From: CBDFMG01 sp965221205 [NCBI: bacterium]
GTDB taxonomy: Bacteria; SM23-31
Length of the DNA: 64,000 nt
Assembly (NCBI GenBank): GCA_965221205.1
Contig: OZ244870.1
Location: 3,038,001 to 3,102,000, forward strand
Direction: 5' to 3'
Shown: piece by piece, positions 23,204 through 64,000 of the stretch
How positions within the stretch are numbered: the first letter of the stretch is position 1
Layout: every line of letters begins with the position of its first letter
The notes under the pieces: model-generated
Told to the model about the DNA's origin: nothing
Database searches by the model: none
What the model saw: the letters and a program-made list of their open reading frames with translations, nothing else
Program-made: the position numbers and the translations under genes

Positions 23204-23315
23204 ATTTCGCAAATCGTACAGTCTGGCGGGCAGAAAAGACTCTGAAAAACTAAAAGCATCTCTAAATTATTAACAAATACTGTCCAACTTGTTCTGACGA
23301 CGTACACTCTCACTT
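23204..23315 (+). promoter_or_regulatory. Degenerate copy of the repeated promoter element
   Basis: TTCGCAAATCGTACAG at 23205-23220 matches the upstream box of the island promoters at 46-63 kb; the -35 position (23241-23246) now reads TCTGAA, and CTTGTTCTGACGACGTACAC further on matches the leader of copies 6 and 7. It lies just upstream of a decayed membrane-protein gene, so promoter and gene have decayed together. Confidence 0.5.
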
Positions 23316-23345
23316 AGTCAATCAAATAACTAATGAGGAGGCCGC

Positions 23346-36948: not shown

Positions 36949-36951
36949 TTC

Positions 36952-38892: not shown

Positions 38893-38902
38893 CCAAACCC
38901 CT

Positions 38903-43572: not shown

Positions 43573-43645
43573 GCGCCATTAGCTCAACTGGTAGAGCAGC
43601 GGACTCTTAATCCGAAGGTTCGGGGTTCGATCCCCTGATGGCGCA
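43573..43645 (+). tRNA. tRNA-Lys (anticodon CTT)
   Basis: 7-bp acceptor GCGCCAT/ATGGCGC, D-arm AGCTCAACTGGTAGAGC, anticodon loop CTCTTAA (CTT) on stem CGGA/TCCG, T-arm CGGGG-TTCGATC-CCCTG. All helices pair; no encoded CCA. Confidence 0.95.
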
Positions 43646-46169: not shown

Positions 46170-46220
46170 AAAGGTTCGCAAATGGTACAGCACGGAGAGT
46201 AGAAAACGCTTGTAAAAGCC
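46170..46220 (+). promoter_or_regulatory. Repeated promoter element, copy 1 (truncated)
   Basis: GGTTCGCAAATGGTACAG, then CACGGAGAG and TTGTAA at 46210-46215, 19 nt after the box. Right after GTAAAAGCC the sequence switches to the DUF885 tail, so the -10 is lost: a recombination joint. Confidence 0.7.
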
Positions 46221-46221
46221 A

Positions 46222-46689
46222 TCGGAAGGATGGGCATGCAGTCTTGAAGAGCTGTTTATGGTGGCGGGAGTACTTGATAATCGACCGCGAAGGGGAAGAG
46301 AAGTGCAACATCTGATGAATGCTTCACATATGGCCCTTGCACTTCCTGATCTAAAAATGCACAGCAACGAGATAACCTTTACTGAAGCACGGCGGTTGAA
46401 TGCCGAGTTAATGCCGAACAACTGGACACACGAAGATGATAGAAATGTGTGGTATGAACAGCAATCAAACTTGCGTATTCCAGGTTGGCATACTGCAGGT
46501 TCTGTTGTCGGCACAGCCCAATTCATGAAACTCTTCAGAGAGCGGGCAATGCAGTTGGGAAACGAATTTAACATTCGTGAGTTTATGGATGAATTTTTCG
46601 CATCCGGAATGATCCCTATGTCTCTTACGAGGTGGGAGATGACAGGAAATGATGACGAAATCAAGGAATTATATTCCGTCATAAAATAG
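46222..46689 (+). pseudogene. C-terminal fragment of a DUF885 gene
   Basis: 468 nt collinear with 59059-59526, about 95 percent identical by eye and without indels: ELFMVAGVLDNRPRRGREVQ through ELMPNNWTHEDDRNVWYEQQ to the C-terminus. Homology continues through the 3' region into the next promoter copy. It lacks the HExxGH helix, so it cannot be active. Confidence 0.9.
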
Positions 46690-46820
46690 TTTATACATTA
46701 TTCACTTGTATTGATTTACTGTGCTCATCGTTTCACCGATGTGCCATCAATCATAATTTTACGATATTGGTTTATCGGCGACACCCCTCACTTTCAGAAA
46801 AATTTCAATCTAAAACATAT

Positions 46821-47006
46821 AAGGTTCTCAAATTGTACAGCACGAAGAGTAAAATAATACTTGTAAAAGCCACATGTATTTCTTAGAATTCATATTATAA
46901 TTTCCAATACATTCTGACGAAGTATATCACATCTTATAAGAGCGTCATGTTTCAACACAATCCCCGTTGATTTCTTTCAATGAATCGATATGGGGGGTAT
47001 CGGATA
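46821..47006 (+). promoter_or_regulatory. Repeated promoter/leader element, copy 2
   Basis: Box GGTTCTCAAATTGTACAG; TTGTAA at 46861-46866; 17-nt spacer; TAGAAT at 46884-46889. The leader TCTGACGAAGTATATCACAT, CATGTTTCAACACAATCCC and GATATGGGGGGTATCGGAT matches copies 4, 8 and 9. The amidohydrolase ATG follows at 47033. Confidence 0.8.
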
Positions 47007-47032
47007 AATTCTAACATATTATTGTAACTAAA

Positions 47033-47962
47033 ATGGCACATGAGATAATAGACGCACATACACACTTCTTTTCATATCAATTTTTCTCTGCACTTATACA
47101 ACAGAAAGACAAGAATGCCGATATTGAAGAATCTTTGCATCTAATTCAGAGCAGCCAGGGAGTAGAGATCCCCGATAGTAACGTTCAAGAACATACAAAA
47201 AAATGGCATGCGGAAATGGATACATTCGGAGTCAGCCGGATGGTAACCTTTGCCAGTCTTCCCGAGGAATCCGATGCCGTTGCAGAAGCAGTACAGTTAA
47301 GTTCAGGCAGATTGACCGGCTTTACGCTTTTAAATCCTTGTGCTAAAAATGCTGTTGCTTCTGTTCATGCCGTTCATAAAAAAGGTTTCAAGGGATTACT
47401 CTTTTTTCCGGTCATGCATAGTTACAGTATATCAGATGAATCCATAATCCCTGTATTGAAAACCGCTGCGCTCTACGGCATGGTCATTCTTGTACATTTC
47501 GGGCTGCTTTCGATACCACTTCGTGATGTGATCGGGCTGCCGCGTCCGTTTGATATACGCTATGGAAATCCACTTGATCTCCAGGTGACTGCCAACAGGT
47601 TTCCTGAAACAATTTTTGTCATTCCGCATTTCGGCTGTGGTTTTTTTCGTGAAACACTCATGCTTGGCTCACTCTGCGAAAATGTTTATGTTGACACATC
47701 AAGTTCGAACAGGTGGCTACGGACACAGCCTGAAAGTATAACGCTGACCGATGTTTTCAAAAAGGCGTTTGAGATATTTGGAAGCAGCCGGATCATATTC
47801 GGGACTGATTCATCGGTCTTTCCCCGCGGCTGGAGAAACGATCTTTTCCGGGAGCAGTTGGATATTTTAAATTCTATTGGTTTAAATCAGGATGACCAAC
47901 ATAATGTTTTCGCAGGCAATGTCAAACGTATTCTTAAACTCAAAAGATTATGCATCGAATGA
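47033..47962 (+). CDS. Amidohydrolase-2 family metal-dependent hydrolase
   Basis: 309 residues, cytosolic. TIM-barrel amidohydrolase: EIIDAHTHFF (HxH metal ligands on strand 1), TFASLPEESDAVAEA, GFKGLLFFPVMHSYSISDES, MVILVHFGLL (His), FVIPHFGCGFFRE (His) and IIFGTDSSVFPRGW (Asp on strand 8). Members decarboxylate or hydrolyse aromatic and lactone substrates. It is driven by promoter copy 2. Confidence 0.88.
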   Translation: MAHEIIDAHTHFFSYQFFSALIQQKDKNADIEESLHLIQSSQGVEIPDSNVQEHTKKWHAEMDTFGVSRMVTFASLPEESDAVAEAVQLSSGRLTGFTLLNPCAKNAVASVHAVHKKGFKGLLFFPVMHSYSISDESIIPVLKTAALYGMVILVHFGLLSIPLRDVIGLPRPFDIRYGNPLDLQVTANRFPETIFVIPHFGCGFFRETLMLGSLCENVYVDTSSSNRWLRTQPESITLTDVFKKAFEIFGSSRIIFGTDSSVFPRGWRNDLFREQLDILNSIGLNQDDQHNVFAGNVKRILKLKRLCIE

Positions 47963-48100
47963 AATAGTTAATATATGTTGCAGTATTATTCATTTTATCC
48001 CCAAATTTAGTGGAAATGGTCCTTGAGGAGAGATAGCAATGGCTTATTGTATATTTAAAGAAGGTGATGTTCATAGAGTAGCAACCCGGAGGGGGAGACG

Positions 48101-48811
48101 GTGGAATACGGGAGGCGGAAGTCGAGTTGGCGGCGGTGCAGCCGGCATCTCGCCTGCTGCGGGTTTCTGTTCCTTGTTCTATGCCAAGCCTCGGGTTGCG
48201 GAGACAATGCGTCGCCCCCGGCCCCGACTCCATCTCCGGTCGCCGCCAACCACTCTCCGGTGGCCTCCGCTGCAGTGATTCCTGATCAGGCACTGCCGGT
48301 CGGCAGAAACGCAGCGACCGTTGACATGGCACCGTACTTTACCGATCTGGATGGGGACATGCTGACGTATACAGCTGTTTCCAGTGATGCTGGCGTCGTG
48401 ATCGCCAGCGTGTCGGGAAGCACCGTGACGCTCACCCCGGTGAGTGCCGGGGCCACGACCGTGGCTGTCACGGCCATGGACCCCGGCGGGGCGACCGCAA
48501 CACAGTCGATTGCTGTGACGGTCCAGGAGTCGGAGCCCCCGCCGCCGAGCACTCCGTATCTGGTCGTGGCGTTGCCGTCGGTGAGTGACAGCAACCCGGT
48601 CGCCAACGCGGAGTTCACGTTCTCGGCGACAGTACGGAACGTCGGGGATGGAGACGCAGCAGCCACGACGCTGCGCTATTACCGGTCCACAGACGCGACG
48701 GTCACCACATCGGACACGGAGATTGGTACGGACGCGGTGACAGCGCCCTCGACCCCAGGCACGTACTACTACGGCGCGTGTAATGAGAAGTATATACAAT
48801 GCTTTGGGTAG
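48101..48811 (+). CDS. Truncated lipoprotein with cadherin/Ig-like and CARDB domains
   Basis: GTG start gives a signal with lipobox LCQASGC, a proline-rich spacer, then an Ig/cadherin-like domain (VDMAPYFTDLDGDMLTYTAV, VTAMDPGGATATQSIAVTV) and a CARDB domain (TFSATVRNVGDGDAAATTLR, APSTPGTYYYGAC). The coding sequence is GC-rich up to 48781 and then breaks mid-domain into the AT-rich 80-nt repeat, which supplies the last nine residues. Surface adhesin-type protein, almost certainly non-functional or a chimeric join. Confidence 0.7.
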   Translation: MEYGRRKSSWRRCSRHLACCGFLFLVLCQASGCGDNASPPAPTPSPVAANHSPVASAAVIPDQALPVGRNAATVDMAPYFTDLDGDMLTYTAVSSDAGVVIASVSGSTVTLTPVSAGATTVAVTAMDPGGATATQSIAVTVQESEPPPPSTPYLVVALPSVSDSNPVANAEFTFSATVRNVGDGDAAATTLRYYRSTDATVTTSDTEIGTDAVTAPSTPGTYYYGACNEKYIQCFG

Positions 48812-48867
48812 TATGCTGCTCTGCTTCATTGATAGAGTCTCGCCTGAAAAAAATAATTCAGGTTTTT
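48782..48867 (+). repeat. 80-nt repeat, copy 2, ending in a terminator
   Basis: Mate of 43830-43909. It ends with CCTGAA (48843-48848) and TTCAGG (48857-48862) followed by TTTTT, an intrinsic terminator. It abuts the GC-rich block exactly. Confidence 0.8.
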
Positions 48868-49037
48868 CAATTCTTAGATGTGACTGATTCGATTGTTATC
48901 TGAAAAGAAATAACTATTGTAATTAAATTAAATGTTTATTAGTATTAACGTAATTAGTCCGAAATGGTCCGGCGATACACAATGTATAGTAGTCCAACCC
49001 GTTAATCTTTTTAACAAATTAAGAGGAGTGTTATAGT

Positions 49038-49979
49038 ATGAATATCAGGTACAATTACTCTATTCTCTATATTGTCTCCGTATGCGGATTCTTAGTCGGT
49101 TGTGGTTTGGATAAACCGCAAATAGAAGAAGGAAATAATTGGATAACACTTCTTGACAAGGATTTAAGCAAATGGAATGTTTTCATGGGTGTTCCTCATA
49201 CAAGTGTTGATCTCCCCGGGTATCCTAAGGGAGACGGTATCCAAGGAACACCGATCGGCTTGAATAATGACCCTTTAAATGTCTTTACGGTTGAGGAATT
49301 GGATGGAACACCTGTACTTCGTATTTCAGGCGAGATTTATAGCGGGTTAAGCACAAAAGAGGAATTTGAAAATTACCATTTGAAAATGGAACATAAATGG
49401 GGTGAAAAAAGGTATGAACCACGATTAGAAAGACAAAGAAAGAATGGCGGGATACTTTATCACGCTCAGGAACCATACGGCCAATTCTGGAATGCCTGGA
49501 TGAAGGTACTAGAAATGCAGGTTCAGGAGGGTGATATTGGGGATTTTGATCCTCTGGGTGGAACTAGTATGGAAATCAGGGCTTCAGAAACAAAAGAAAA
49601 TCGTCCGGGTGATTATTATTTTGGGGATACCCTATGGATCTATGATCCCGCTTCAGAACCAAGGGAGTTTCGAAGCGAATTTGAGCCGGCCAGAGTCCGC
49701 AAAATCCGCGACTATGAAAATCCCACCGGAGAATGGAATACCTTAGAGTTGATTTGTCTGGGAGACAAGAGTCTTCATATCGTCAATGGTCATGTGGTTA
49801 TGGTTTTGGAGAATGCAAAAAACTGGCTGGATGATGAAAATTATCTGCCTCTAACGCGTGGGAAGATTGAATTACAAGCGGAAGGCGCCGAAATCTTCTA
49901 CCGCAACATTAAAATACGTGAGATAGAATCAATACCGGATACGTATTTGAAACAAACTATATTGCCTCAGACAAAGTGA
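49038..49979 (+). CDS. DUF1080 (3-keto-disaccharide hydrolase-like) lipoprotein
   Basis: 313 residues. Lipoprotein signal IVSVCGFLVGC (lipobox LVGC), then a concanavalin-like DUF1080 domain: WITLLDKDLSKWNVFMG, VLRISGEIYSGLSTKEEFEN, YHLKMEHKWGEKRY, NGGILYHAQEPYGQFW, EWNTLELICLGDKSLHIVNG and the terminal GKIELQAEGAEIFYRNIKI. The family cleaves 3-keto-glycosides or binds glycans, usually beside oxidoreductases; here the PQQ dehydrogenase gene follows after 100 nt. The ribosome site AGGAGTG fixes the start. Confidence 0.9.
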   Translation: MNIRYNYSILYIVSVCGFLVGCGLDKPQIEEGNNWITLLDKDLSKWNVFMGVPHTSVDLPGYPKGDGIQGTPIGLNNDPLNVFTVEELDGTPVLRISGEIYSGLSTKEEFENYHLKMEHKWGEKRYEPRLERQRKNGGILYHAQEPYGQFWNAWMKVLEMQVQEGDIGDFDPLGGTSMEIRASETKENRPGDYYFGDTLWIYDPASEPREFRSEFEPARVRKIRDYENPTGEWNTLELICLGDKSLHIVNGHVVMVLENAKNWLDDENYLPLTRGKIELQAEGAEIFYRNIKIREIESIPDTYLKQTILPQTK

Positions 49980-50079
49980 TTTGGTGATAAATTGCCATTC
50001 AAGGTTTACCGGGGAGATCTCTCAATCCACAGTTAAATATAAAGCAATAAGGAATTTAAATGACTTATTGTAAATTTTA

Positions 50080-52281: not shown

Positions 52282-52350
52282 AATCAGAATCGATGATCCC
52301 CACATCAACTAATCTCTTATCGTTATATAGTTCTCATCCTATCTGAATAT

Positions 52351-52450
52351 AGTTCTTATCCTATTCTGAGGAGCAGAAATCACTTGTATAAGCCACATCT
52401 ATATAATAATATTCATTACACGCTGACAAAGTACATTTCATCGATAAAAA
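52351..52450 (+). promoter_or_regulatory. Repeated promoter element, copy 3 (partial box)
   Basis: The box is degraded (AGTTCTTATCCTATTC) but CTGAGGAGCAGAAATCAC, TTGTAT (52384-52389), a 17-nt spacer and TAATAT (52407-52412) are kept; leader CGCTGACAAAGTACATTTCA matches the family. It precedes the DoxX gene. Confidence 0.6.
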
Positions 52451-52467
52451 ATAAGAAATGGGGAGAT

Positions 52468-52910
52468 ATGAAAATTAAAGCCATTCGACATACGACAAAT
52501 AACAAGATTGCTGGAGGTGTTCGTCTGATGCTTGCTGTTGTTTTCCTTATGACTGGTCCCATGAAGTTACTGGTGCCTCAGCTTTCAGATGCGTGGTCCG
52601 GGCAACTGCTAACTGCCCAGATCCCTCTTTATGAGATTTCGAGGTGGACAGTTCCCCTTATTTAGAGCTACTGTTGGGTTTAGTACTGGCTTTAGGGCTT
52701 TTCTCCCGCCCAAGTGCTGTTGTTGTCATTGGTATCATGATTGTAGCAACATATGTGCATATTGTCGTAGATGATCCATCACTCTTTCCACTTCAACCTC
52801 AAGAACCAATCATTCCAATTATGATCATTATAATGAGCATCTTGATTTTATGGCAAGGAGCAGGCGCATGGAGTATGGATTGGAGAGCAAGTAAAAATAC
52901 TTCTATTTAA
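52468..52910 (+). pseudogene. DoxX-family membrane protein, one frameshift
   Basis: ATG at 52468 after GGGGAGAT. First frame: GGVRLMLAVVFLMTGPMKLL and YEISRWTVPLI, then a stop; second frame: ELLLGLVLALGLFSRPSAVV, MIVATYVHIVVDD and a last helix ending at 52910. Joined, they form a normal four-helix DoxX protein of about 145 residues; a single base is lost near 52660. DoxX proteins are quinone- or thiol-linked membrane components. It could also be a sequencing error. Confidence 0.8.
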
Positions 52911-52919
52911 TACCTCCTC

Positions 52920-53100
52920 AAAGGTTCGCACAACGTACAGCCCGAGGAGCAGTAATTGCTTGTAATTGCCATATACATACCTTACCATTAATACCAAAGT
53001 ACCAGTACACTTTGACGAAGTATATCACATCCTGAAAAAGCATCATATTTCACACAAAACCCAATTAATCTCTTTCAGAGAATTGATATGAGAAATATCC
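52920..53100 (+). promoter_or_regulatory. Repeated promoter/leader element, copy 4
   Basis: Box GGTTCGCACAACGTACAG, CCCGAGGAGC; TTGTAA at 52960-52965, 17-nt spacer, TACCAT at 52983-52988. Leader TTTGACGAAGTATATCACAT, CATCATATTTCACACAAAAC and GAATTGATATGAGAAATATC. The next gene starts at 53471. Confidence 0.8.
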
Positions 53101-53470
53101 GTATATAGCTGTCAGAAAAAAATGTTGCTATTCGAAAACAGGAAAGTACCTTTATTGATAAGACTAATCATACTATCATTTATTCTGAACTGATTTCTTG
53201 TGAACACATCAGCACTCGTTCATACGTTGATCTTGTGATTAAAAATGGTGCGAAATCGAAGTAATATAATATCTTAAAATGGCTTTAGCATCCACATATT
53301 TACGGAAAATAATAATTTCCAATTATGTACTCATACTTTCTTTAGTATAAGTAAACAGCCTGCTTTCAGCTGGGGAATAAACTGCAATACATTTTTTAAC
53401 TGTCTTTTTACCGAATCATTATTCATAAATATCCATCAATTACTACTGGTGTTGTGTCAAAATCCGGGAG
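53101..53470. other. Long leader before the 53.5 kb amidohydrolase gene
   Basis: 370 AT-rich nt without a gene. It ends with CCGGGAGGTGTTT before the ATG, a good ribosome site. The stretch looks like an insertion between leader element and gene compared with other copies. Confidence 0.45.
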
Positions 53471-54877
53471 GTGTTTATGCGAATTACAAAATATTTTTTC
53501 AATACGTGCTGTATACTAATAGTGCTCATGGTTTGTGTGCCACAGTGGACGCGAGCTCAATCTATAAAGGACACTGACGTATATCGCCGTTTACAACACG
53601 CAATTGACCGCATATGGATTGTAGATACACACGAGCATTTGGGAAGCGAGGAGGACTATTTAAAAAAGCCTGTCGATTTCCTGGCGAGAATGCTTCATTA
53701 TGTTGAATCAGATCTGGTCTCGGCAGGTATGGAGCGTCCACGGGGACTTGACTGGGGTGTTAAATTTGACATCCAGGATACATCCAAACCCCTGAGTGAA
53801 CGATGGCCTGTATTTATGAAATTCTGGAACGAAATGCGATTCACAGGCTATGGCAAAGCCATGCAAACCGTTGTGAACGATTTGTACGGACTTGACATTA
53901 ATACACTTACTCCCGCTTCAGCAAAAGAATTGAACAAAAGAATTGAAGCAGCCAATACACCCGGTCTTTATCGCCGGATATTAAAAGACAAAGCCAGAAT
54001 AGATCTCTCAATGGTCGATATCGAAAGAACGGACGTTGATAGGGAGTTTTTTGTCCCGGTGATGTGCTTTGATTATTTCATGGAAGCTCAAAGTAAAGTA
54101 CAATTGGAAGCCATTAGCGGCAATACGGGTGTACCAATCCGCAGCCTCCAAGACATGGTTACGGCTCTTGAAAAAGCATTCGACGATGCTGTCAACGAGG
54201 GTATTGTCGGCATCAAATCGCGCCTTGCTTATGACCGTAGGATTTATTATCCAAGACCAACAGAAGCTGAAGCGGAAGCAGCGTTCAACAAAATCTTGGG
54301 AACATACATCGGTTATGCCCGGACAAAAAAGGTTCCATCATGGGAAGAAATTGAACTCTATCAGAATTACATAATGCACCAGATATGCCGGCTTGCTGCA
54401 GAATATAAGATCACTTTTCAGATTCACACGGGCATTCAGACCGGAGCAGGAAATATCGTTACGAATGCAAAACCTACAGACCTGCTCAATTTAATCATGG
54501 AATATCCGGACGTCAAATTTGACCTTTTCCATGGCGGTTATCCGTACGGCCGGGAACTTGGCGCCATGGCAAAAAACTTTCAAAATGTATATATTGACAT
54601 GGTCTGGACGACAATAATATCACCGAAACTTTCGAGAGAATTCCTGTCTGAATGGATCGAGATTGTTCCTGCTAATAAAATCATAGCTTTCGGCGGTGAT
54701 TACTCCTATGTGGAAGGTGCCTATGCACATGCCAAAATGGTAAGGGAAATGGTAACGGAGACGCTAGCTGAAAAAGTCATTTCAGGGTACCTCACGGAAG
54801 AAGAAGCAAATGAGCTCGCAATAAAATTTCTAAGAACAAATCCGATTGAATTGTTCAATCTGCCGCTTCAGAAATAG
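53471..54877 (+). CDS. Exported amidohydrolase-family hydrolase
   Basis: 468 residues. Signal peptide ITKYFFNTCCILIVLMVCVP, cleaved near WTRAQ. Amidohydrolase barrel: RIWIVDTHEHLGSEEDYLKK (HxH), EYKITFQIHTGIQTGAGNIV (His), VKFDLFHGGYPYGRELGAMA (His), KIIAFGGDYSYVEGAYAHAK (Asp). It resembles the uronate isomerase/amidohydrolase-2 group. Exported, with unknown substrate; it belongs to the promoter-copy 4 unit. Confidence 0.85.
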   Translation: MFMRITKYFFNTCCILIVLMVCVPQWTRAQSIKDTDVYRRLQHAIDRIWIVDTHEHLGSEEDYLKKPVDFLARMLHYVESDLVSAGMERPRGLDWGVKFDIQDTSKPLSERWPVFMKFWNEMRFTGYGKAMQTVVNDLYGLDINTLTPASAKELNKRIEAANTPGLYRRILKDKARIDLSMVDIERTDVDREFFVPVMCFDYFMEAQSKVQLEAISGNTGVPIRSLQDMVTALEKAFDDAVNEGIVGIKSRLAYDRRIYYPRPTEAEAEAAFNKILGTYIGYARTKKVPSWEEIELYQNYIMHQICRLAAEYKITFQIHTGIQTGAGNIVTNAKPTDLLNLIMEYPDVKFDLFHGGYPYGRELGAMAKNFQNVYIDMVWTTIISPKLSREFLSEWIEIVPANKIIAFGGDYSYVEGAYAHAKMVREMVTETLAEKVISGYLTEEEANELAIKFLRTNPIELFNLPLQK

Positions 54878-54910
54878 ATTTGCCAGGCAACTCTGATTTT
54901 GAGCAGACCG

Positions 54911-55909
54911 TTAGTGCTCCTTGCTAATGGACGCCGCCCAGGTTTCGTATTCCTTGAGGCAATCCTCCGGACTGACGAACTTCTTCCAGACCAAGCGTGC
55001 CCGGAATCCATACTGTTTGCCTTCTTCGATCTTGTGAATGACGTACTGGAAGTCCCAGGCAGGCCGGGGAACTTCGGGCAATTTGAACTTGAAGAGGCTG
55101 AAGCGAACCTCATCCTCCGCGCTGTACATTTTGTTGAACATCAACATGAAGACCATGCCCTTGGCCGCTCGACCGTAGTAGAAGGGCTTGGTGAACCGGG
55201 GATAATCGTAGCTCCACGAGTTCAGCTTCCAGTTGTGGTCGGGGTCGTACTCTTGATCGGCCGCAGGGAGACTTCGGTAGGTGCCGCCTTGGTTCCAGTC
55301 AGCATGGCCTTTTGGTGCATCTGCTTTGATCCACTTCACTTTCTGCTCCGGTCCCTCGACACCCCGGAAGTTGAGCGCCACCTCCTCGACATCGTTCATG
55401 TAGTTGGCGAAGAAGAGGATGGCGTAGCCCCGCGTGCCGAATAGTGCCTTGTCATGAGGGGTGGTGCGGAAGTCCACGTCGATGTAATGCGGCGTGGTGA
55501 CGGCGTAATTTAACGTGCTGGACATGGCCCACGGGGAGTCCTCCTTGTTTCGCACAAGCTGGGCCGATTTCCCATCCGGCAACGGGACTAGGGCGAATTT
55601 GTCCTGTCGGGGCGTGAAGGAGTTGTTCGGATTCTTGTGGCCGGACGTGATGTGTTCAAAGTTCAATCCAGTGCCTGCATCGGTGTTGGCCGAGTCGAAG
55701 GCATGGAACTCTGGGGCATCCTTCTGGTGGAATAATGAAGCCAGTCCGCTCAGGACCTCCGGGGATTGGGCATTGTCTCGAATGGAAACCTTCAAATCGC
55801 CCTCCGTGATAGTTAGAATATTGCTGACTGGCTTGTCATCCGCCGCCGGCTCATTACTCCTACACGCCAACACAAAAACAAGTAGACACAAACTAATGAA
55901 GAGTCTCAT
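54911..55909 (-). CDS. Lipoprotein of unknown function (GC-rich import)
   Basis: 332 residues from the ATG at 55907-55909, chosen for AAGGAG six bases upstream. Signal MRLFISLCLLVFVLACRSN with lipobox VLAC. Body: ASLFHQKDAPEFHAFDSANT, NYAVTTPHYIDVDFRTTPHD, GYAILFFANYMNDVEEVALN, RFTKPFYYGRAAKGMVFMLM and RPAWDFQYVIHKIEEGKQYG. Similar lipoproteins occur in Planctomycetota and Verrucomicrobiota; no activity is known to me. It is the only minus-strand gene in this island and clearly richer in GC, so it was inserted between promoter units. Confidence 0.78.
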   Translation of the reverse strand: MRLFISLCLLVFVLACRSNEPAADDKPVSNILTITEGDLKVSIRDNAQSPEVLSGLASLFHQKDAPEFHAFDSANTDAGTGLNFEHITSGHKNPNNSFTPRQDKFALVPLPDGKSAQLVRNKEDSPWAMSSTLNYAVTTPHYIDVDFRTTPHDKALFGTRGYAILFFANYMNDVEEVALNFRGVEGPEQKVKWIKADAPKGHADWNQGGTYRSLPAADQEYDPDHNWKLNSWSYDYPRFTKPFYYGRAAKGMVFMLMFNKMYSAEDEVRFSLFKFKLPEVPRPAWDFQYVIHKIEEGKQYGFRARLVWKKFVSPEDCLKEYETWAASISKEH

Positions 55910-56004
55910 GGATTTCTCCTTAGGCATAACACGTTATTCTATAGTTTTCCATATACTATACCATATTAAATACATTTATCTCAAGTCACAAGAACAAAAA
56001 GCAT

Positions 56005-56073
56005 AAAGGTTCGCAAATCGTACAGCCCGGGGAGCAAAATTTACTTGTAAAAGTAGTATGTACTACTTAGTAT
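56005..56073 (+). promoter_or_regulatory. Repeated promoter element, copy 5
   Basis: Box GGTTCGCAAATCGTACAG, CCCGGGGAGCA; TTGTAA at 56045-56050; 17-nt spacer; TAGTAT at 56068-56073. There is almost no leader: the first Met of the sugar dehydrogenase is about 20 nt beyond the -10, so translation may be nearly leaderless. Confidence 0.8.
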
Positions 56074-56083
56074 TTAACTCAAT

Positions 56084-57574
56084 GTGTTAGACATGTTTTT
56101 ACGGTGTACAATATTGACAGACGTGATAATTAAATTAATCGTATCATTATTCTTTCTATTCCCGTGCGCAATCAGTTTGTATGCACAGTTTGATCTCGAG
56201 CAGGCATTTCCAAATCTGACTTTTGTCCGGCCGGTCGATCTTCAACACCCGGGTGACGGAAGCAACAAACTTTTTGTCATCGAGCAGCGGGGTATCGTTC
56301 TGGGTTTTGAAAATTCCATGAATGCTTCCGCATCCTTTAATTTTCTCGACATCAGTAACAGAGTAAACGATTCCGGCAATGAAGAAGGGCTTCTGGGACT
56401 GGCATTTCACCCGAACTACGCAGCAAATGGGTTTTTTTATGTTAACTATACCGCGTCAAATCCGAACAGTACGGTTATAGCGCGGTACAGTGTCAATCCG
56501 GATGACGGGACTGCCGCCTTAAACGATTCCGAGTTTATTATACTTGAGGTATCGCAGCCATTCCCGAATCACAACGGTGGACAGCTTGCATTCGGCCCCG
56601 ATGGTTACCTGTATATTGGGCTCGGAGACGGGGGATCTGGCGGAGATCCGCTCGGCAACGGTCAGAATAAAAGTACACTACTCGGGGCAATGCTGCGGAT
56701 TGATGTGGACAGTCAATCACCGGACAACAATTACCGAATACCGCCTGATAATCCTTTTGCCGGGAATACGAGCGGTTTTAAAGAAGAAATATATGCGTAC
56801 GGTTTACGCAATCCGTGGAGGTTCAGTTTTGATTCTGTAACCGGTAATCTCTGGGTTGCCGATGTGGGTCAAAATTCTATCGAGGAAATAGACATCGTTG
56901 AAAGTGGCGTCAACTACGGTTGGAATATCACCGAAGGTTCTTCCTGCTTTAATCCCCCGTCCGGATGCTCGATCACTGGATTACAAACACCCGTCTGGGA
57001 ATATGACCACAGCCTGGGAGCATCGGTAACCGGAGGATATGTATATAGAGGAACGCTCGTTCCTGAACTGAAGGGCAAGTATATATATACTGATTTTGTA
57101 AGCGGGAGGATATGGTCTTTGGAGTATGACGGTGTGAATCCTCCGGTTAACACACAACTCATAGACTCTGATCTTTCCATAGCTTCACTCGGTGTAGATA
57201 GAGATAATGAATTGTACTTTCTGGCGTTCGACGGGAAAATTTACCGTATTCAACCGACAATTTTAACCTCCGTGAATAACAACCCAGTCATTATAAGGGA
57301 ATACTTCATTGGACAGAATTATCCAAATCCGTTCAACCCGGAGACGACCATCCAGTTTAGTCCGCCCAAGACCATTCATGTCTCCTTGAGGATTTATAAT
57401 ACTCGCGGTCAGGAAATAATAAATCTCATTGATACTGTCATTCCCGCAGGAAGGAATGAAGCTGTTTGGGATGGGAAGAACAATGAAGGACAAATGGTGT
57501 CTTCAGGTATTTATTTTATGAGGCTTCAAGCTGGTAGATTTACCGACTTTAAGCGAATGACGTTCATCAAATAA
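56084..57574 (+). CDS. PQQ-dependent sugar dehydrogenase with type IX sorting domain
   Basis: 496 residues from GTG at 56084; ATG at 56093 is an alternative. Signal peptide IVSLFFLFPCAISLYAQ. Six-bladed soluble aldose dehydrogenase propeller: PVDLQHPGDGSNKLFVIEQR, EEGLLGLAFHPNYAANGFFY, PFPNHNGGQLAFGPDGYLYI (catalytic His region), GLRNPWRFSFDSVTGNLWVA, YGWNITEG, TGGYVYRG. The last ~80 residues are a Por/type IX C-terminal domain (NYPNPFNPETTIQFSP, WDGKNNEGQMVSSGIYFMRL), so it is exported across the outer membrane. It oxidises aldose sugars. Confidence 0.93.
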   Translation: MLDMFLRCTILTDVIIKLIVSLFFLFPCAISLYAQFDLEQAFPNLTFVRPVDLQHPGDGSNKLFVIEQRGIVLGFENSMNASASFNFLDISNRVNDSGNEEGLLGLAFHPNYAANGFFYVNYTASNPNSTVIARYSVNPDDGTAALNDSEFIILEVSQPFPNHNGGQLAFGPDGYLYIGLGDGGSGGDPLGNGQNKSTLLGAMLRIDVDSQSPDNNYRIPPDNPFAGNTSGFKEEIYAYGLRNPWRFSFDSVTGNLWVADVGQNSIEEIDIVESGVNYGWNITEGSSCFNPPSGCSITGLQTPVWEYDHSLGASVTGGYVYRGTLVPELKGKYIYTDFVSGRIWSLEYDGVNPPVNTQLIDSDLSIASLGVDRDNELYFLAFDGKIYRIQPTILTSVNNNPVIIREYFIGQNYPNPFNPETTIQFSPPKTIHVSLRIYNTRGQEIINLIDTVIPAGRNEAVWDGKNNEGQMVSSGIYFMRLQAGRFTDFKRMTFIK

Positions 57575-57602
57575 TTAATACCTGTTATCGTAGACAATTA
57601 AT

Positions 57603-57631
57603 GGGCTGATTCGAAAGAGTCAGCTCTTTTA
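57603..57631 (+). terminator. Intrinsic terminator after sugar dehydrogenase
   Basis: GGCTGATTC (57604-57612), GAAA tetraloop, GAGTCAGCT (57617-57625) with one mismatch-like wobble, followed by CTTTT. Confidence 0.75.
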
Positions 57632-57661
57632 TGTTTTAATATTATATGCAATATCAATAAT

Positions 57662-57840
57662 AAAGGTTCGTAATTCGTACAGCCCGAGGAGCATAAAACA
57701 CTTGTAAAAGCAAATTTCATAGCTTACTATTAATAGCTCCCCCTATGTTCTGACGACTCACACCAGATGTTGTAATTGTATAGATACAAAATAGAATTCC
57801 TATATATTCTCTCTTAAAATATTGAATTGGGGAATATCAG
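57662..57840 (+). promoter_or_regulatory. Repeated promoter/leader element, copy 6
   Basis: Box GGTTCGTAATTCGTACAG, CCCGAGGAGCA; TTGTAA at 57702-57707, 17-nt spacer, TACTAT at 57725-57730. The leader CTCCCCCTATGTTCTGACGA is of a second subtype shared with copy 7. It ends ATTGGGGAATATCAG before the DUF885 gene. Confidence 0.8.
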
Positions 57841-57876
57841 TTATTTTAAAACAATTCTAAAAAAGAGGTTTGAACA

Positions 57877-59526
57877 ATGAACAACCGTAAACATTTTGCT
57901 GTCGTTTTAGCTTTTTGTGCTGGTATTACATTGTTTTATTGCACAATGGAGAATGGGGGCTATGATGTGGCCGAGAGCAGCGATTATGCTGATCTTGTCA
58001 GCCTCTTCAACGAATTTCGTGAGTTCCAAAAGCCGGTATTTATTAACGGTATTCCCGATTATACAGCAGGCGCAATAGAGGAGCAGAAACGCGGCTTGAA
58101 GGAATTTCAAAGGCGACTTGATGACATTGATCCAAATAGCTGGATTGTCTCAAAGCAGGTTGATTATATTTTAGTGTGGGCGGAAATGAACGGACTTGAT
58201 TTTTATCATCGGATTTATAGACCCTGGTCACGAGATCCCGTATTCTACCTTCCTTCACAAAGAGGAGCCGGGCCTGCCATGAGCATCGAACTTCAGTTTC
58301 CCAGTAGCCTGCCTCTCCCGGATAATAAGATTGATGCATTTAGAAAGCAGTTGAAAGCTATTCCTGATATATACGAACAGGCGAAAAAGAACCTTACGGA
58401 AGCAGCAGGCGATCTGGCAATTATAGCAATCCATTATATTGATCGTGAAGCGGGAAGATATGAATATCTTGCGAACAGCCTGACAGACCACCATCCTGAT
58501 CTGGTTCCCGATGCGGAACGAGCCGTGGATGCAGTGAGAAACTATGGGAAATGGCTCGAAGATAACAAGAGCAGTATGACAGCGCCTGCAGGTATTGGAA
58601 TTGAGAACTACAACTGGTGGTTGAAAAATGTTCAACTCTTTCCATACACATGGGAAGAGTGTCGCATCATAATGGAGCACAAATATAATCGTGTAGTGAC
58701 TTTTTTAAAATTAGAGGAAAACAGAAACCGTAATCTTCCGGAGCTTAAAGTGGCTGATACTGATGAGGAGTATTACCGTCGTCTTGATAGAGCCCTTAAT
58801 TATGTTCTTGATTTTCTTCGAGAAGAAGAAATATTAACGGTCCCTGACTGGCTCCAGGCCGCAGACTACAGTGATCCGAATGAAGTAAGAGGGCCGCGGC
58901 CATCTCCTCCTACCATTGACTCAAGAGCACGTGAGCGCGAAGTGCTTCCTGGCGAAGCACATGAGTTTATTGGCCATCTTTTCGATAGACGGAGATTAGA
59001 ACGTGATGACCGTCTGATCCGTAGTGCATCACGCCTGTATAATATGGATTGGATCCGCTCGGAGGGATGGGCATGCAGTCTTGAAGAGCTTTTTATGGTG
59101 GCGGGAGTACTTGATAATCGACCGCGAAGGGGAAGAGAAGTTCAACACCTCATGAATGCTTCACATATGGCCCTTGCACTCCCTGATCTAAAAATGCACA
59201 GCAACGAGATAACCTTTACTGAAGCACGGCGATTGAATGCCGAGTTAATGCCGAACAACTGGACACATGAAGATGATAGAAACGTGTGGTATGAGCAGCA
59301 ATCAAATCTGCGCGTTCCAGGTTGGCATACTGCGGGTTCTGTTGTCGGCACAGCCCAATTTATGAAGCTATTCAGAGAGCGGGCAATGCAGTTGGGAATC
59401 GAATTTAACATTCGCAAGTTTATGGATGAATTTTTTGCGTCCGGATTGATCCCTATGTCTCTTGCGAGGTGGGAAATGACAGGATATGATGATGAGATCA
59501 AAGAATTATGTCCCGTCATAAAATAG
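57877..59526 (+). CDS. DUF885-family metallohydrolase lipoprotein
   Basis: 549 residues. Signal KHFAVVLAFCAGITLFYC with lipobox LFYC. The DUF885 fold is helical; its catalytic helix reads GEAHEFIGHLFDRRRL (HExxGH, zinc-type) and the partner helix IRSEGWACSLEELFMVAG supplies the Glu. Members are secreted peptidase-like or amidase-like enzymes. The C-terminal 156 residues are duplicated at 46.2 kb. Ribosome site AAGAGGTTTG. It belongs to the promoter-copy 6 unit. Confidence 0.87.
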   Translation: MNNRKHFAVVLAFCAGITLFYCTMENGGYDVAESSDYADLVSLFNEFREFQKPVFINGIPDYTAGAIEEQKRGLKEFQRRLDDIDPNSWIVSKQVDYILVWAEMNGLDFYHRIYRPWSRDPVFYLPSQRGAGPAMSIELQFPSSLPLPDNKIDAFRKQLKAIPDIYEQAKKNLTEAAGDLAIIAIHYIDREAGRYEYLANSLTDHHPDLVPDAERAVDAVRNYGKWLEDNKSSMTAPAGIGIENYNWWLKNVQLFPYTWEECRIIMEHKYNRVVTFLKLEENRNRNLPELKVADTDEEYYRRLDRALNYVLDFLREEEILTVPDWLQAADYSDPNEVRGPRPSPPTIDSRAREREVLPGEAHEFIGHLFDRRRLERDDRLIRSASRLYNMDWIRSEGWACSLEELFMVAGVLDNRPRRGREVQHLMNASHMALALPDLKMHSNEITFTEARRLNAELMPNNWTHEDDRNVWYEQQSNLRVPGWHTAGSVVGTAQFMKLFRERAMQLGIEFNIRKFMDEFFASGLIPMSLARWEMTGYDDEIKELCPVIK

Positions 59527-59656
59527 CTAATACATGAGTCGATTATGTTGATTTAATTGTCCATATTTCTCCTTGTGTACCATCAAGCATAATTTTATAA
59601 CTTTGGTTTATCATCGACTCCCTTCACACTCAGATAATTTTCAATCTAAAATATAC

Positions 59657-59775
59657 TCGTTCCTAATTCGCACACTCCGGGGAGCATTAAACACTTGTAA
59701 AAGTAAATTTCATAGCTTACTATCAATGGCTCCCCTATGTTCTGACGACTCACACCCAAGTTGTATAAGGTTTGT
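59657..59775 (+). promoter_or_regulatory. Repeated promoter/leader element, copy 7
   Basis: Box GTTCCTAATTCGCACAC, TCCGGGGAGCA; TTGTAA at 59695-59700, 17-nt spacer, TACTAT at 59718-59723. Leader GGCTCCCCTATGTTCTGACG as in copy 6. Next gene at 59886. Confidence 0.8.
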
Positions 59776-59885
59776 GAACAAACTACTGCAATAATCATGA
59801 TGTCACATAGTCTGACCACATATGAAGTAATTCATAAATAAAAATTAACAAAAAAACCCACTTTTAATCAATAGAGGAGAAAGTC

Positions 59886-61301
59886 ATGATAGTTCGAGGT
59901 ATGATTTTATTATGTGCGGTACTGTTCACTGCACCTTTTGCTAATGCGCAAGCTCAGGAAATGGACGACCTGAAGGAATGGAATAATCAGATCCGCCGGG
60001 AAAAGTTTGATCTTGTTCTGCCCAAAGCCATGAGAAAGAACAATATTGACATGTGGATTCACGTAATGAGAATAGCAATACCTGATGCCTTTGGTGCAGA
60101 AGAATTTGGCAGCACCTCCGGTGTTTTTGTCTTCACAGATCGTGGCGGTGACAGAATCGAACGCGCGGTTCTCGGACGTCGCTGGGGAGCTACACATCGT
60201 GAAAGAGGAGAAATGGAGACGTTGGTTGAAGAAAGTGGGGCCTACGACATAATTCGCGATCCAATACGTGTGCAGGAACCGGTAGGAAGCCCGATGATAG
60301 AATATGATTTCCGATTTAAGGGCCTTAGAGAATTTGTTGAAGCACGTGATCCCAAACGCATTGCTGTAAATTTCAAGCATAATTTGGGACAGTGGGAGAC
60401 CTACACTGACTTTGGAGGTGCGAGAGACGGCTTATCACATACAGACTACCTCCTCTTGACTGAAGAGCTCGGTGATAAATATGCCGACAGGCTGGTTTCG
60501 TCTGAATATGTGATTATGGATTACATTATACGAAAGGTGCCAAGCGAAATTCAGCTGCTTAAAAAAATAAGTCAGGATAGAGTTGAACGTGTAAAGAAAG
60601 CTTTTGCTGCAGTCGTGCCGGGTGTAACTAGGAATCGCGATGCGGGAATAGCTCTCTTTGGTCGGAGAAGCACAGGAATATCACAAAGAGGAAATAGTCC
60701 GGGCTATGAAAACAGTGTGATCCAGAGAGGCGACATCGTTGCCGCACCAAGCCAGGGATTGTACGCCTATGTGCTCCGTGACGGAGAGACTGAGCCGCCA
60801 CCGGATATCAAAAAACTGTGGGCAGAGTATCTGAAAATCGATAAGATTCTGGCAGAAACCATCAGAGTGGTTCGAACTCCTCGTGAAATAATTCAAAACT
60901 ACACGCGGAAATTTGAGGAAGAAGGGATTATTGTTAGGGAGAACCAATTGCATATGGTTCAGCCAAAGAACAATTTTCCCGTTTATGCCCTAGGTTTTGA
61001 TTCTGAAAAAACCCAGCTTAGTGTCGACGCTCATGGCATGATGAAAGGAGCGCGTGAGAGGCCGAACGAGAATTTATTTGGTCCCAGGATTGGCTCTCTC
61101 GGTCCGGATTGGACGAAAGATATACCGCTCCCACCCATTCACCACTTTGTTTTAGAATATTTTTTCTATATGCCGTCGCCAACATCCAACGAAGACGAAG
61201 ACCAATATTTATTCTTTTGGGATCATGAGCAAGCGATTGCTACCGAACGTGGAGTCGAGTATTTATCCCCACCGCAAAAGGAGCTTATCCTTATTCGATA
61301 A
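59886..61301 (+). CDS. M24-like (aminopeptidase P) exported protein, metal site lost
   Basis: 471 residues. Signal peptide IVRGMILLCAVLFTAPFANA. Creatinase-like N-terminal domain (RREKFDLVLPKAMRKNNIDM, GVFVFTDRGGDRIERAVLGR, FVEARDPKRIAVNF). In the M24 'pita-bread' domain VIQRGDIVAAPSQGLYAYVL should hold two metal-binding Asp residues (IDxG and YTDM type); that strand-loop is missing. The later HxxG (DAHGMMKG) and Glu strands (FVLEYFFYM, TERGVEYL) remain. Probably a pseudo-peptidase. It starts after AGAGGAGAAAGTC and its TAA overlaps the next promoter box. Confidence 0.82.
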   Translation: MIVRGMILLCAVLFTAPFANAQAQEMDDLKEWNNQIRREKFDLVLPKAMRKNNIDMWIHVMRIAIPDAFGAEEFGSTSGVFVFTDRGGDRIERAVLGRRWGATHRERGEMETLVEESGAYDIIRDPIRVQEPVGSPMIEYDFRFKGLREFVEARDPKRIAVNFKHNLGQWETYTDFGGARDGLSHTDYLLLTEELGDKYADRLVSSEYVIMDYIIRKVPSEIQLLKKISQDRVERVKKAFAAVVPGVTRNRDAGIALFGRRSTGISQRGNSPGYENSVIQRGDIVAAPSQGLYAYVLRDGETEPPPDIKKLWAEYLKIDKILAETIRVVRTPREIIQNYTRKFEEEGIIVRENQLHMVQPKNNFPVYALGFDSEKTQLSVDAHGMMKGARERPNENLFGPRIGSLGPDWTKDIPLPPIHHFVLEYFFYMPSPTSNEDEDQYLFFWDHEQAIATERGVEYLSPPQKELILIR

Positions 61302-61487
61302 AGGTTCACAAATCGTTCGGCCCAAGGAGTATATAGTATTTGTAAAAGTAAATGTATATCTTATCATTTATATTATAATTTCGAAGTATTTTTTGACCAG
61401 GTAAATCACATCTTAAAAGAGCGTCATATTTCATACACAATCCCTATTTGTCTCTTTTTGAGTGTTGATGTTGGGAATATATACTAA
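61300..61487 (+). promoter_or_regulatory. Repeated promoter/leader element, copy 8
   Basis: Starts inside the stop codon of the preceding gene (TAAAGGTTCACAAATCG). TTGTAA at 61340-61345, 16-nt spacer, TATCAT at 61362-61367. Leader TTTGACCAGGTAAATCACAT, GAGCGTCATATTTCATACAC and TGTTGGGAATAT matches copies 2, 4 and 9. Next ATG at 61505. Confidence 0.8.
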
Positions 61488-61504
61488 TAAAAGGAGACAC
61501 AATT

Positions 61505-62950
61505 ATGTCTACTCGACAAGTTTTTTGTGCAATCTTTTCTTTGACCTTCTTTCTGAGCTTCTGTAGTTCGGAAACAGTTGAATCGATATCGACCGATACG
61601 GCTATGACTAATGTCCAGATTCAGGAAGAGGACGAGCTAAAAGAATTGATCAATCAGATTCGCCGGGATAAGTTTGACCTCATCCTGCCTCAAGTCATGC
61701 GGGAGAACAATATCGACATGTGGATTCAAGTGATGAGAGAAGGTAATCCTGATCCCATGAGAGATGAATTGGGCAGCAACAACGGTGTTTTCATCTTCAC
61801 AGACCGCGGCAGTGACAGGATCGAACGGGCAGTTATCGGTCATAGATGGAAAAGTTCCGATCAAAGTACAGATAGAATCCCCTATTTTGATGTGGTTCGA
61901 GAAGGTGGAGCCTACGACATAATCGCCGAAGAAGTTTCACGGATCGAAATGCCGGGAGGCCAGAAAACAGAATTTGATCACAGATTTAAGGACGTGGGAG
62001 AATTTGTTGCCGAGCGTGACCCCAAACACATTGGTGTAAATTACCTGGAAAAGCTGGGACCTCCCGAGGTGTATGAGTTCCCAAGGTTACGATCCGATGG
62101 CATTTCGTATACGGACTACAACCTATTAGTCAAAGCACTTGGTGATACCTATGCGAAGAGGATTGTTTCGGCTGAATATCTGATATATGATTACTTAACG
62201 AGACCGGTGCCGAGCGAAATTGTAATGTTTAAGAAAATACGTACGGTTATCGCAGAATCTTTAGAGAGAGATTTTGCTAAAATCGTGCCGGGCGTAACTA
62301 AATTGAGTTTTCCTGAGGGGGGTGGTTCTGTTGTGGATAAGGACGGAAATAGAAGAAGTGGTGACTCTGTGATCCGGGGAGGCGACCTGATTAGAATAGC
62401 CAAGGGTCGACAAAGCCACCATTATTTGGACTCCAAGTGGAAATTCGCGAACTTCTATGAGATCATGCATGGATATGGCTATGTGCTCCGTGAAGGAGAG
62501 ACTGAACCGCCACCAAAGATCAAAAAAATCTGGGCAGATGCACTAAAAGTCCGTAAGATTTTAGAAGACAACATCAAGCTGGGCCGCACCGCTGGTGAAA
62601 CATTTGAAATCCTCAAGCGAAAAATTGAAGAAGCAGGGTTTATTTATGTAAATAGACAACTATATAACAAAGATCTGGATCCTGAAAAAACCCAGGTTCC
62701 TCTCGACGTACATGCCGCGGGAAAAGGAGTGAATGCCCCCAGGATAAGTCCTTTAGGTCCGGATTGGCAACGGGATTTGATACTGCAACCAAATCACCAC
62801 TTCTATTTTGAATACTGGGTCTATATTCCGATGCCTGAATGGGGTGAAGAGAGATATTTATCTTTACCATTTCATGACGGTGCGATTGTCACCGAACGTG
62901 GAGTCGAGTATTTTTCTCCACCGCCTACGGAGCTTCGTCTCATTCGCTAA
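61505..62950 (+). CDS. M24-like (aminopeptidase P) lipoprotein, metal site altered
   Basis: 481 residues, paralogue of the preceding gene (about half identical by eye). Signal MSTRQVFCAIFSLTFFLSFC with lipobox LSFC. N-terminal domain RRDKFDLILPQVMRENNIDM and GVFIFTDRGSDRIERAVIGH. In the M24 domain GGDLIRIAKG replaces the usual DxG Asp and NFYEIMHGYGYVL replaces NFYTDMKR-type Asp; VHAAGKG, FYFEYWVYI and VTERGVEYF keep the His and two Glu positions. Two missing metal ligands suggest no peptidase activity. Ribosome site AAAGGAGAC. Its stop overlaps promoter copy 9. Confidence 0.83.
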   Translation: MSTRQVFCAIFSLTFFLSFCSSETVESISTDTAMTNVQIQEEDELKELINQIRRDKFDLILPQVMRENNIDMWIQVMREGNPDPMRDELGSNNGVFIFTDRGSDRIERAVIGHRWKSSDQSTDRIPYFDVVREGGAYDIIAEEVSRIEMPGGQKTEFDHRFKDVGEFVAERDPKHIGVNYLEKLGPPEVYEFPRLRSDGISYTDYNLLVKALGDTYAKRIVSAEYLIYDYLTRPVPSEIVMFKKIRTVIAESLERDFAKIVPGVTKLSFPEGGGSVVDKDGNRRSGDSVIRGGDLIRIAKGRQSHHYLDSKWKFANFYEIMHGYGYVLREGETEPPPKIKKIWADALKVRKILEDNIKLGRTAGETFEILKRKIEEAGFIYVNRQLYNKDLDPEKTQVPLDVHAAGKGVNAPRISPLGPDWQRDLILQPNHHFYFEYWVYIPMPEWGEERYLSLPFHDGAIVTERGVEYFSPPPTELRLIR

Positions 62951-63142
62951 AGGTTCGCAAATCTTACACCCCGGGGAGGAAAATAGACTTGTAAAAACCG
63001 CTTGTATTTCTTATCATTTATATCAAACATATCAAAGTATCCAATATATTCTGACCAAGTATATCACATCGTAAAAAAGCATCATATTTCAACACAATCC
63101 CAATTAATCTCTTTTAGATGATTACTAGTGGGAATATCAGAT
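62949..63142 (+). promoter_or_regulatory. Repeated promoter/leader element, copy 9
   Basis: Begins in the stop codon (TAAAGGTTCGCAAATC); CCCGGGGAGG; TTGTAA at 62989-62994, 17-nt spacer, TATCAT at 63012-63017. Leader TCTGACCAAGTATATCACAT, CATCATATTTCAACACAATC, GTGGGAATATCAGATTA. The gene it served is no longer present; an IS1595 element lies 35 nt downstream. Confidence 0.8.
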
Positions 63143-63176
63143 TATATTACATTCCTTCATCAATTGTAAAATTTTT

Positions 63177-63887: not shown

Positions 63888-64000
63888 AATTTTTCAGCAA
63901 TAATTTTAGTATCCTCAATTACTTTAAAAGATTCTTTATCAGGGATGACTCTTTGTTCATGTACTGCTCCATTACGTAATTTTCTAATTTTATGGGCAGC
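63854..64000 (-). CDS. HEPN-like gene, C-terminal end, altered by IS insertion (partial)
   Basis: Minus-strand frame entering from the right edge: HKIRKLRNGAVHEQRVIPDK, then ESFKVIEDTKIIAEKL. RNGAVH is an R-x4-H motif like that of HEPN or DUF4145 proteins. After KL the frame runs into the IS end (SRQGKGFKY) and stops at 63854. With the IS removed and one target repeat kept, the gene would read IIAEKFYN and stop, so only the last few residues changed. Confidence 0.6.
   Translation of the reverse strand, partial: AAHKIRKLRNGAVHEQRVIPDKESFKVIEDTKIIAEKLGSRQGKGFKY

What the first reader, a model, noticed from the sequence alone, without database searches (positions are those of the whole stretch)
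46170..63142. A repeated promoter with a conserved upstream box drives an island of exported enzymes
Copies at 46170, 46821, 52351, 52920, 56005, 57662, 59657, 61300 and 62949, all on the plus strand, each lie just before a gene or gene remnant. They share GGTTCGCAAATCGTACAG then CCCGGGGAGC, a TTGTAA exactly 19 nt after the box in most copies, and a TANNAT hexamer after 17 nt (16 in copy 8). Hexamers and spacing are kept while spacer sequence varies (TAGAAT, TACCAT, TAGTAT, TACTAT, TATCAT), as expected for selection on a promoter. The upstream box lies where an activator would bind. The genes behind are mostly exported or catabolic enzymes, so this looks like an undescribed regulon with one dedicated regulator.
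Basis: partly seen in the sequence, partly recalled or inferred. Interest (0 to 1): 0.85.

Follow-up and report, generated by a model that had tools for sequence, protein, structure and literature searches.

The report
Repeated promoter with conserved upstream box
A stretch of DNA from an unidentified bacterium carries about nine copies of one promoter-like sequence in front of mostly unrelated, mostly secreted enzymes, which looks like a small co-regulated gene set whose regulator is not yet known.

Summary
The box occurs far above chance (8 matches with at most 3 mismatches, 0.05 expected). A profile finds the nine copies plus a tenth at 23204. All nine boxes are intergenic, where 15.7% of the island is. 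In the seven full copies the box (mean pairwise identity 0.76), the TTGTAA (1.00) and four positions of TANNAT (1.00) are kept, while the spacer (0.50), the ten bases after the -10 (0.51) and the upstream flank (0.35) drift. Selection on a promoter plus an upstream protein site would give this. The -35/-10 pair also occurs without the box before two further genes. Corrections: copy 1 has no -10 and is fused to a gene remnant. Copy 3 has a gapped box before a frameshifted gene. Copy 4 lies about 550 nt from its gene. Copy 9 is followed by an insertion sequence. Homology often runs on into the 5' leader, so much of the family spread by duplication and exchange. No regulator was recognised, the box was not found elsewhere, and the genome of the window is not held. 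"One dedicated regulator" remains untested. Probably a known kind of thing with a new sequence.

The parts
46170..46220 (+). Copy 1: box and -35 (TTGTAA at 46210); no -10; runs into a DUF885 3' remnant
46222..46819 (+). DUF885 3' remnant plus downstream spacer, 89% identical to 59059-59655 (coding part 93%, spacer 73%)
46821..47005 (+). Copy 2: box, TTGTAA-N17-TAGAAT, group A leader; before amidohydrolase 47033-47962
52351..52450 (+). Copy 3: gapped box, TTGTAT-N17-TAATAT; before a frameshifted DoxX gene (52468-52910)
52920..53107 (+). Copy 4: box, TTGTAA-N17-TACCAT, group A leader; about 550 nt before amidohydrolase 53471-54877
56005..56112 (+). Copy 5: exact consensus box, TTGTAA-N17-TAGTAT; directly before glucose/sorbosone dehydrogenase-like gene with T9SS tail (56084-57574)
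57662..57774 (+). Copy 6: box, TTGTAA-N17-TACTAT, group B leader; before DUF885 gene 57877-59526
59657..59765 (+). Copy 7: box (CGTTC...), TTGTAA-N17-TACTAT; 88% identical to copy 6; before gene 59886-61301
61300..61480 (+). Copy 8: box directly after the stop codon of 59886-61301; TTGTAA-N16-TATCAT, group A leader; before gene 61505-62950
62949..63146 (+). Copy 9: box directly after the stop codon of 61505-62950; TTGTAA-N17-TATCAT, group A leader; followed by an IS
63175..63889 (+). IS1595-type insertion sequence with imperfect 16-nt terminal inverted repeats; transposase 63220-63864
23204..23318 (+). Tenth copy: box and the TTCTGACGA leader motif kept; by eye no clear hexamers
27378..27540 (+). 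Box-less relative: TTGTAA-N17-TATAAT and group A-like leader, before ORF 27904-28815
48917..48945 (+). Box-less TTGTAA-N17-TAGTAT before the 3-keto-disaccharide hydrolase-like gene 49038-49979

Best explanation
Each copy is a sigma70-type promoter (TTGTAA, 16-17 nt, TANNAT) with a 28-nt protein-binding site directly upstream, at about -72 to -45 from the expected start. A DNA-binding regulator, most likely an activator, is inferred to bind the box and help polymerase at these weak promoters, so that a scattered set of mostly single, mostly exported hydrolases and oxidoreductases is switched together. The set grew by duplication of genes and by exchange of promoter-leader segments between genes, and several members are now decayed. 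Shown here: the copies, their positions, and the pattern of conservation. Inferred: transcription from these sites, binding, activation, and that the regulator is one protein.
For: Over chance. All nine copies intergenic and in the direction of the next gene; the intergenic share is 15.7%. Box 0.757, -35 1.00 and -10 0.754 (four columns 1.0, two about 0.25) against spacer 0.497 and discriminator 0.514 in the same seven copies; column permutation p 8e-5 for the box and 4e-5 for the hexamers. For pairs between copy groups only: box 0.76, spacer 0.50, discriminator 0.40, p 1e-4 and 2e-4; box against the 9-nt linker p 0.01 (all pairs) and 0.02 (between groups). Box to -35 is 9 nt in 7 of 8. Upstream flank 0.35, against 0.28 expected for random intergenic DNA. 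The five -10 types of the seven full copies are all non-consensus, while the box-less copy at 27386 has TATAAT, as expected if the box makes up for a weak core. Only copies 2, 8 and 9 of the nine reach the generic sigma70 score of the promoter scan. A strict TTGTA(A/T)-N16-18-TANNAT lies within 300 nt upstream of 5 of 6 boxed genes and of 1 of 19 listed genes without a box. Leaders have no unusual RNA fold (z -1.44 to +0.09, six folded), which speaks against an RNA switch.
Against: No transcript data, no regulator gene, no other genome with the box. For the one pair with a neutral yardstick, copies 8 and 9, box identity (0.71) is hardly above that of fourfold sites of the genes before them (0.67, 55 of 82). 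No dyad or direct repeat common to the box copies stands above shuffles; copies 5 and 9 alone show a weak dyad (36 and 15 of 500 shuffles reach it, for the best of two arm lengths and eight copies; also listed). The box is long for one protein site. Shared leaders show that part of the likeness is descent. Copy 10 keeps the box without clear hexamers. The promoter scan as a whole finds 53 sites against 40.9 (sd 6.6) in shuffles, and terminator-like sites, such as the one at 57603 before copy 6, are not above chance (19 against 16.8). Several of the 19 comparison genes may lie inside operons, so that contrast is soft.
Confidence: 0.6

Rival explanations
1. Mere descent: one promoter region with its leader was copied many times by gene duplication and promoter capture (a 'mobile promoter' in the sense of Matus-Garcia, Nijveen and van Passel). 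The box is simply its best-kept part and need not bind a special regulator.
For: Group A copies share about 160-200 nt and group B copies 109 nt. Copy 7's promoter region is 88% like copy 6's but only 58% like copy 2's, although the DNA upstream of copies 2 and 7 is homologous (spacer 73%, coding 93%). A promoter-leader and a signal-peptide start are shared by 27904 and 61505, whose remaining proteins show no significant match. Box of copies 8 and 9 hardly better kept than fourfold sites.
Against: Within the same copies the spacer and discriminator have drifted and the box and hexamers have not; descent alone would not spare just these columns.
Confidence: 0.2
2. The box is a crossover site: units of box, promoter and gene are exchanged or inserted at it, as cassettes are in integrons, and it has no regulatory role of its own.
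For: In 17 of the 20 box-to-box alignments listed the homology begins within 4 nt of the box; in the other three it begins 7-15 nt further up. The same DUF885 tail is followed by different promoter types at copies 2 and 7. The box directly abuts the stop codon of both paralogues.
Against: No recombinase was recognised by Pfam among the ORFs scanned other than the IS1595 transposase. No inverted repeat pairs the left end of the box with the far end of a copy in any of seven copies examined. The stretch between copies 2 and 3 holds several genes, one with its own box-less promoter. The hexamers are conserved as well.
Confidence: 0.1
3. The box is a repressor or architectural site, or part of a second, upstream promoter.
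For: Nothing here tells activation from repression; the position at about -72 to -45 allows either (inference from the spacing).
Against: The weak -10 of the boxed copies fits activation better; the right half of the box is G+C-rich, unlike an UP element (recalled).
Confidence: 0.1

Closest known systems
Ordinary bacterial regulons with a sigma70 core promoter and an upstream activator site (CRP-type, AraC-type or OmpR/PhoB-type promoters; recalled)
   Same: Conserved site at a fixed distance upstream of -35, weak core promoter, many separate genes under it
   Different: Box sequence matches no site I can name; 28 nt, no common dyad or direct repeat found; regulator unknown; nine of the ten copies in the window are clustered in one island
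Putative mobile promoters ('Promoter propagation in prokaryotes', Matus-Garcia et al. 2012; paper not held, seen only as a citation and in passages of PMC9208149 and PMC4596501 that mention the idea; the rest recalled)
   Same: Similar promoter regions before non-homologous genes of one genome
   Different: Here the copies are diverged (57-89% in the box) with conservation focused on hexamers and box; no IS or MITE ends seen
Integron cassette arrays (recalled)
   Same: Successive one-directional units with a repeated sequence between genes
   Different: No integrase recognised among the ORFs scanned, the ends of the repeat are not inverted copies of each other, and the units carry their own promoter

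Membership tests
sigma70 promoter family with a shared upstream site (regulon) | -35 and -10 hexamers at 16-18 nt spacing before genes | tested here: met
   7 of 9 copies have TTGTAA and TANNAT at 16-17 nt; copy 1 lacks -10, copy 3 has TTGTAT/TAATAT
sigma70 promoter family with a shared upstream site (regulon) | upstream site at fixed distance and more conserved than neighbouring non-site DNA | tested here: met
   gap 9 nt in 7 of 8; box 0.757 against spacer 0.497 and discriminator 0.514, p 8e-5; but box of copies 8/9 0.71 against fourfold sites 0.67
sigma70 promoter family with a shared upstream site (regulon) | a regulator that binds the site and co-occurs with it | tested here: inconclusive
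   none recognised among 59 of 76 ORFs of 100 aa or more, a primary-type sigma factor apart; the rest of the genome is not held
sigma70 promoter family with a shared upstream site (regulon) | transcription starts downstream of the -10 and responds to one signal | not testable with these tools
   needs RNA
putative mobile promoter | promoter regions alike before non-homologous genes | tested here: met
   copies 6 and 7 are 88% alike before a DUF885 gene and a gene of no Pfam family; group A copies before an amidohydrolase and 61505
putative mobile promoter | evidence of movement, such as absence in close relatives | not testable with these tools
   no relative found
MITE or transposon end | terminal inverted repeats at the edges of the copies | tested here: not met
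   none pairing the left end of the box with the far end in seven copies
structured leader RNA / riboswitch | fold better than shuffled sequence, or an Rfam match | tested here: not met
   z -1.44 to +0.09 in six leaders; Rfam at gathering scores gives only three tRNAs in the window

The most novel reading that the evidence does not exclude
The box-promoter-leader segment, in one case with the first codons of a signal peptide, is an exchange module. Recombination at its edges places one inducible, export-ready start in front of unrelated enzymes, so that the island works as a growing array of co-regulated secreted functions in an uncultured lineage.
Probability: 0.12. Interest if true: 0.6.

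Novelty: new member of a known kind. Interest (0 to 1): 0.36.

Why it matters
If right, it gives a ready search motif for a regulon of secreted hydrolases in a lineage with no close relative found here, and a case where the history of promoter copying and the selection on its parts can both be read from one island. If it is only an ordinary regulon, its value is as annotation.

Tried and rejected
RNA element: six leaders fold no better than shuffles, and Rfam shows only tRNAs. MITE or transposon end: no inverted ends in seven copies. Integron attC-like site: the same test. A likeness of the left part of the box to the XerC arm of dif sites was noted from memory and not tested further: by eye the right part of the box shows no matching second arm, and no recombinase was recognised. 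Dyad or direct repeat in the box: not above shuffles for the consensus or at a common centre in eight copies (127 and 65 of 300 column shuffles reach it); copies 5 and 9 alone show a weak dyad. Finding the box elsewhere: genome contigs 3 hits where about 1.9 are expected by chance, none followed by TTGTAA in the stretch printed; viral contigs 0 in three pattern scans and 0 for two island proteins; plasmids 0 for one protein. Literature: three box strings occur in 0 papers of the library; searches for mobile promoters and for regulons in such bacteria were seen as listings only and gave general background. A structure model of 61505 with its paralogue 59886 was too poor to use (mean pLDDT 33.6). 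The two match nothing in Pfam or NCBIfam, and 61505 matches no PDB sequence at E up to 1. That they resemble M24 aminopeptidases is my recollection only. In one search the -35 of copies 1 and 3 was entered one to three bases off, so its table is slightly wrong for those two; one search has the right register. The translate one search was one base out of frame and was not used.

Full report
Observation. GGTTCGCAAATCGTACAG with at most 3 mismatches occurs 8 times in the window (expected 0.05); seven of these are among the nine and one, at 23204, is new. A profile built from the nine finds all nine again, the tenth copy at 23206-23308 (E 3e-9) and a partial, box-less relative at 27378-27439 (E 4e-4). 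The nine were used to build the profile, so only the tenth and the partial match are independent finds. TTGTAA-N17-TANNAT occurs 9 times against 0.29 expected. Six of these are copies 2, 4, 5, 6, 7 and 9. Two are box-less sites before ORF 27904 and before the gene at 49038. One is at 17663, of unknown meaning.

Corrections. Copy 1 keeps box and -35 but is fused at about 46220 to the 3' part of a DUF885 gene whose longer relative is 57877-59526. Copy 3 has a gapped box, TTGTAT and TAATAT, before a DoxX gene split between two frames (the first piece matches DoxX only at E 0.04, the second at 3e-5). Copy 4 lies about 550 nt before the likely ATG of its amidohydrolase. Copy 9 is followed by an IS1595-type element with 16-nt inverted repeats (88% complementary) at 63175-63190 and 63874-63889. 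Copies 8 and 9 begin directly at the stop codon of the gene before them.

Is it a promoter? In the seven copies that are complete, mean pairwise identity is 0.352 in the 20 nt upstream, 0.757 in the box, 0.55 in the linker, 1.00 in the -35, 0.497 in the spacer, 0.754 in the -10 and 0.514 in the next ten bases. In the -10 four columns are invariant and two are near random. Box against spacer plus discriminator gives p 8e-5, and hexamers against the same p 4e-5, by shuffling columns; box against linker gives 0.01. Counting only pairs between copy groups gives 1e-4, 2e-4 and 0.02. The copies serve as their own control here, since all parts of a copy share one history. The test treats columns as independent and the hexamers were chosen after seeing the copies, so the p-values are rough. 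Box to -35 is 9 nt in 7 of 8 and 10 in copy 2. Against this, for copies 8 and 9, which follow paralogous genes, box identity (0.71) is hardly above that of fourfold sites of those genes (0.67, 55 of 82). Of the nine copies only 2, 8 and 9 reach the score of the generic promoter scan, which as a whole finds 53 sites against 40.9 in shuffles.

Box and core are separable. At 27386 the same TTGTAA, the same spacing and a related leader occur with a consensus TATAAT and no box. At 48917 TTGTAA-N17-TAGTAT occurs without a box. The boxed copies have TAGAAT, TACCAT, TAGTAT, TACTAT and TATCAT. A weak -10 with a box and a consensus -10 without one fits an activator, but of the two box-less sites only one has the consensus. 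Of 26 listed genes, a strict TTGTA(A/T)-N16-18-TANNAT lies within 300 nt upstream of 7: five of the six boxed genes, the gene at 49038, and the transposase behind copy 9. A looser TTGNNA/TANNNT pair lies before 4 of the 19 genes without a box. The gene 27904 and the boxed gene 53471 lie further than 300 nt from their sites. So this core does not look like the general promoter of the window, though several of the 19 may be inside operons.

How the family spread. Of 20 box-to-box alignments, 17 begin within 4 nt of the box and three begin 7-15 nt further up; they end at various points downstream. Copies 2, 4, 8 and 9 share about 160-200 nt. Copies 6 and 7 share 109 nt (88%). The DNA before copies 2 and 7 is homologous (DUF885 tail 93%, spacer 73%), yet their promoter regions are only 58% alike, and copy 7 goes with copy 6. 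So promoter segments appear to have been exchanged. ORF 27904 shares the leader and 41 N-terminal residues (39% identity) with 61505 and no other significant stretch. The two proteins 59886 and 61505 are 45% identical (BLASTP; 49% in the alignment). Six leaders have no special fold, and none of seven copies has inverted ends. No dyad common to the copies stands out.

Genes. Behind boxes: amidohydrolase (47033), split DoxX (52468), amidohydrolase (53471), glucose/sorbosone dehydrogenase-like with a T9SS tail (56084), DUF885 (57877), and two paralogues without family (59886, 61505). By eye the products of 53471, 56084, 57877, 59886 and 61505 begin with a signal-like stretch, and 47033 does not. 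The start of 53471 was read from the DNA; the translate call for it was out of frame. The two amidohydrolases are at most distantly related (26% over 85 residues, E 0.002).

What could not be done. No genome is held for the window. Scans of the viral collection (three patterns, two proteins) and one protein search of plasmids gave nothing. The pattern and peptide scans need exact matches, so diverged relatives of the box would be missed. The organism is therefore unknown. The T9SS tail suggests a Bacteroidota-like or related phylum, which is inference from recalled knowledge. Pfam recognised no DNA-binding regulator among 59 of the 76 ORFs of 100 aa or more, except a primary-type sigma factor at 8260-9117.

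Verdict. A family of weak sigma70-type promoters with a shared upstream protein site is the best reading (0.6). Pure descent, an exchange site, and repression are rivals. The kind is known; three strings of the box were in none of the papers of the library.

Noticed in passing
1-3980: The first 3.9 kb are about 60% G+C against about 35-51% for the other 2-kb windows, with an abrupt change by eye at about 3.98 kb inside an ORF that matches the LON substrate-binding domain; a foreign segment or a chimeric join.
   Followed up: partly
43829-43909 and 48781-48861: An 81-nt repeat at 97.5% identity, one copy about 180 nt after tRNA-Lys (43573-43646) and one at the end of a G+C-rich Ig/CARDB-like gene fragment (48101-48811); possible trace of an insertion.
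   Followed up: partly
17148-17432 / 42659-42937 and 21368-21667 / 31727-32024: Two pairs of 285-301 nt repeats, 88-90% identical, in a region with many short ORFs.
   Followed up: no
27904-28815: Orphan ORF of 303 aa whose first 41 residues resemble 61505-62950 while the rest does not; a lipoprotein-type start shared by unrelated proteins.
   Followed up: partly
34885-41428: Type I restriction genes (HsdR-like, HsdM-like with a specificity domain in the same protein) with a DUF4145 protein and a protein kinase domain protein.
   Followed up: no
54911-55927: A minus-strand ORF of 338 aa with no Pfam or NCBIfam match inside an island of plus-strand genes.
   Followed up: partly
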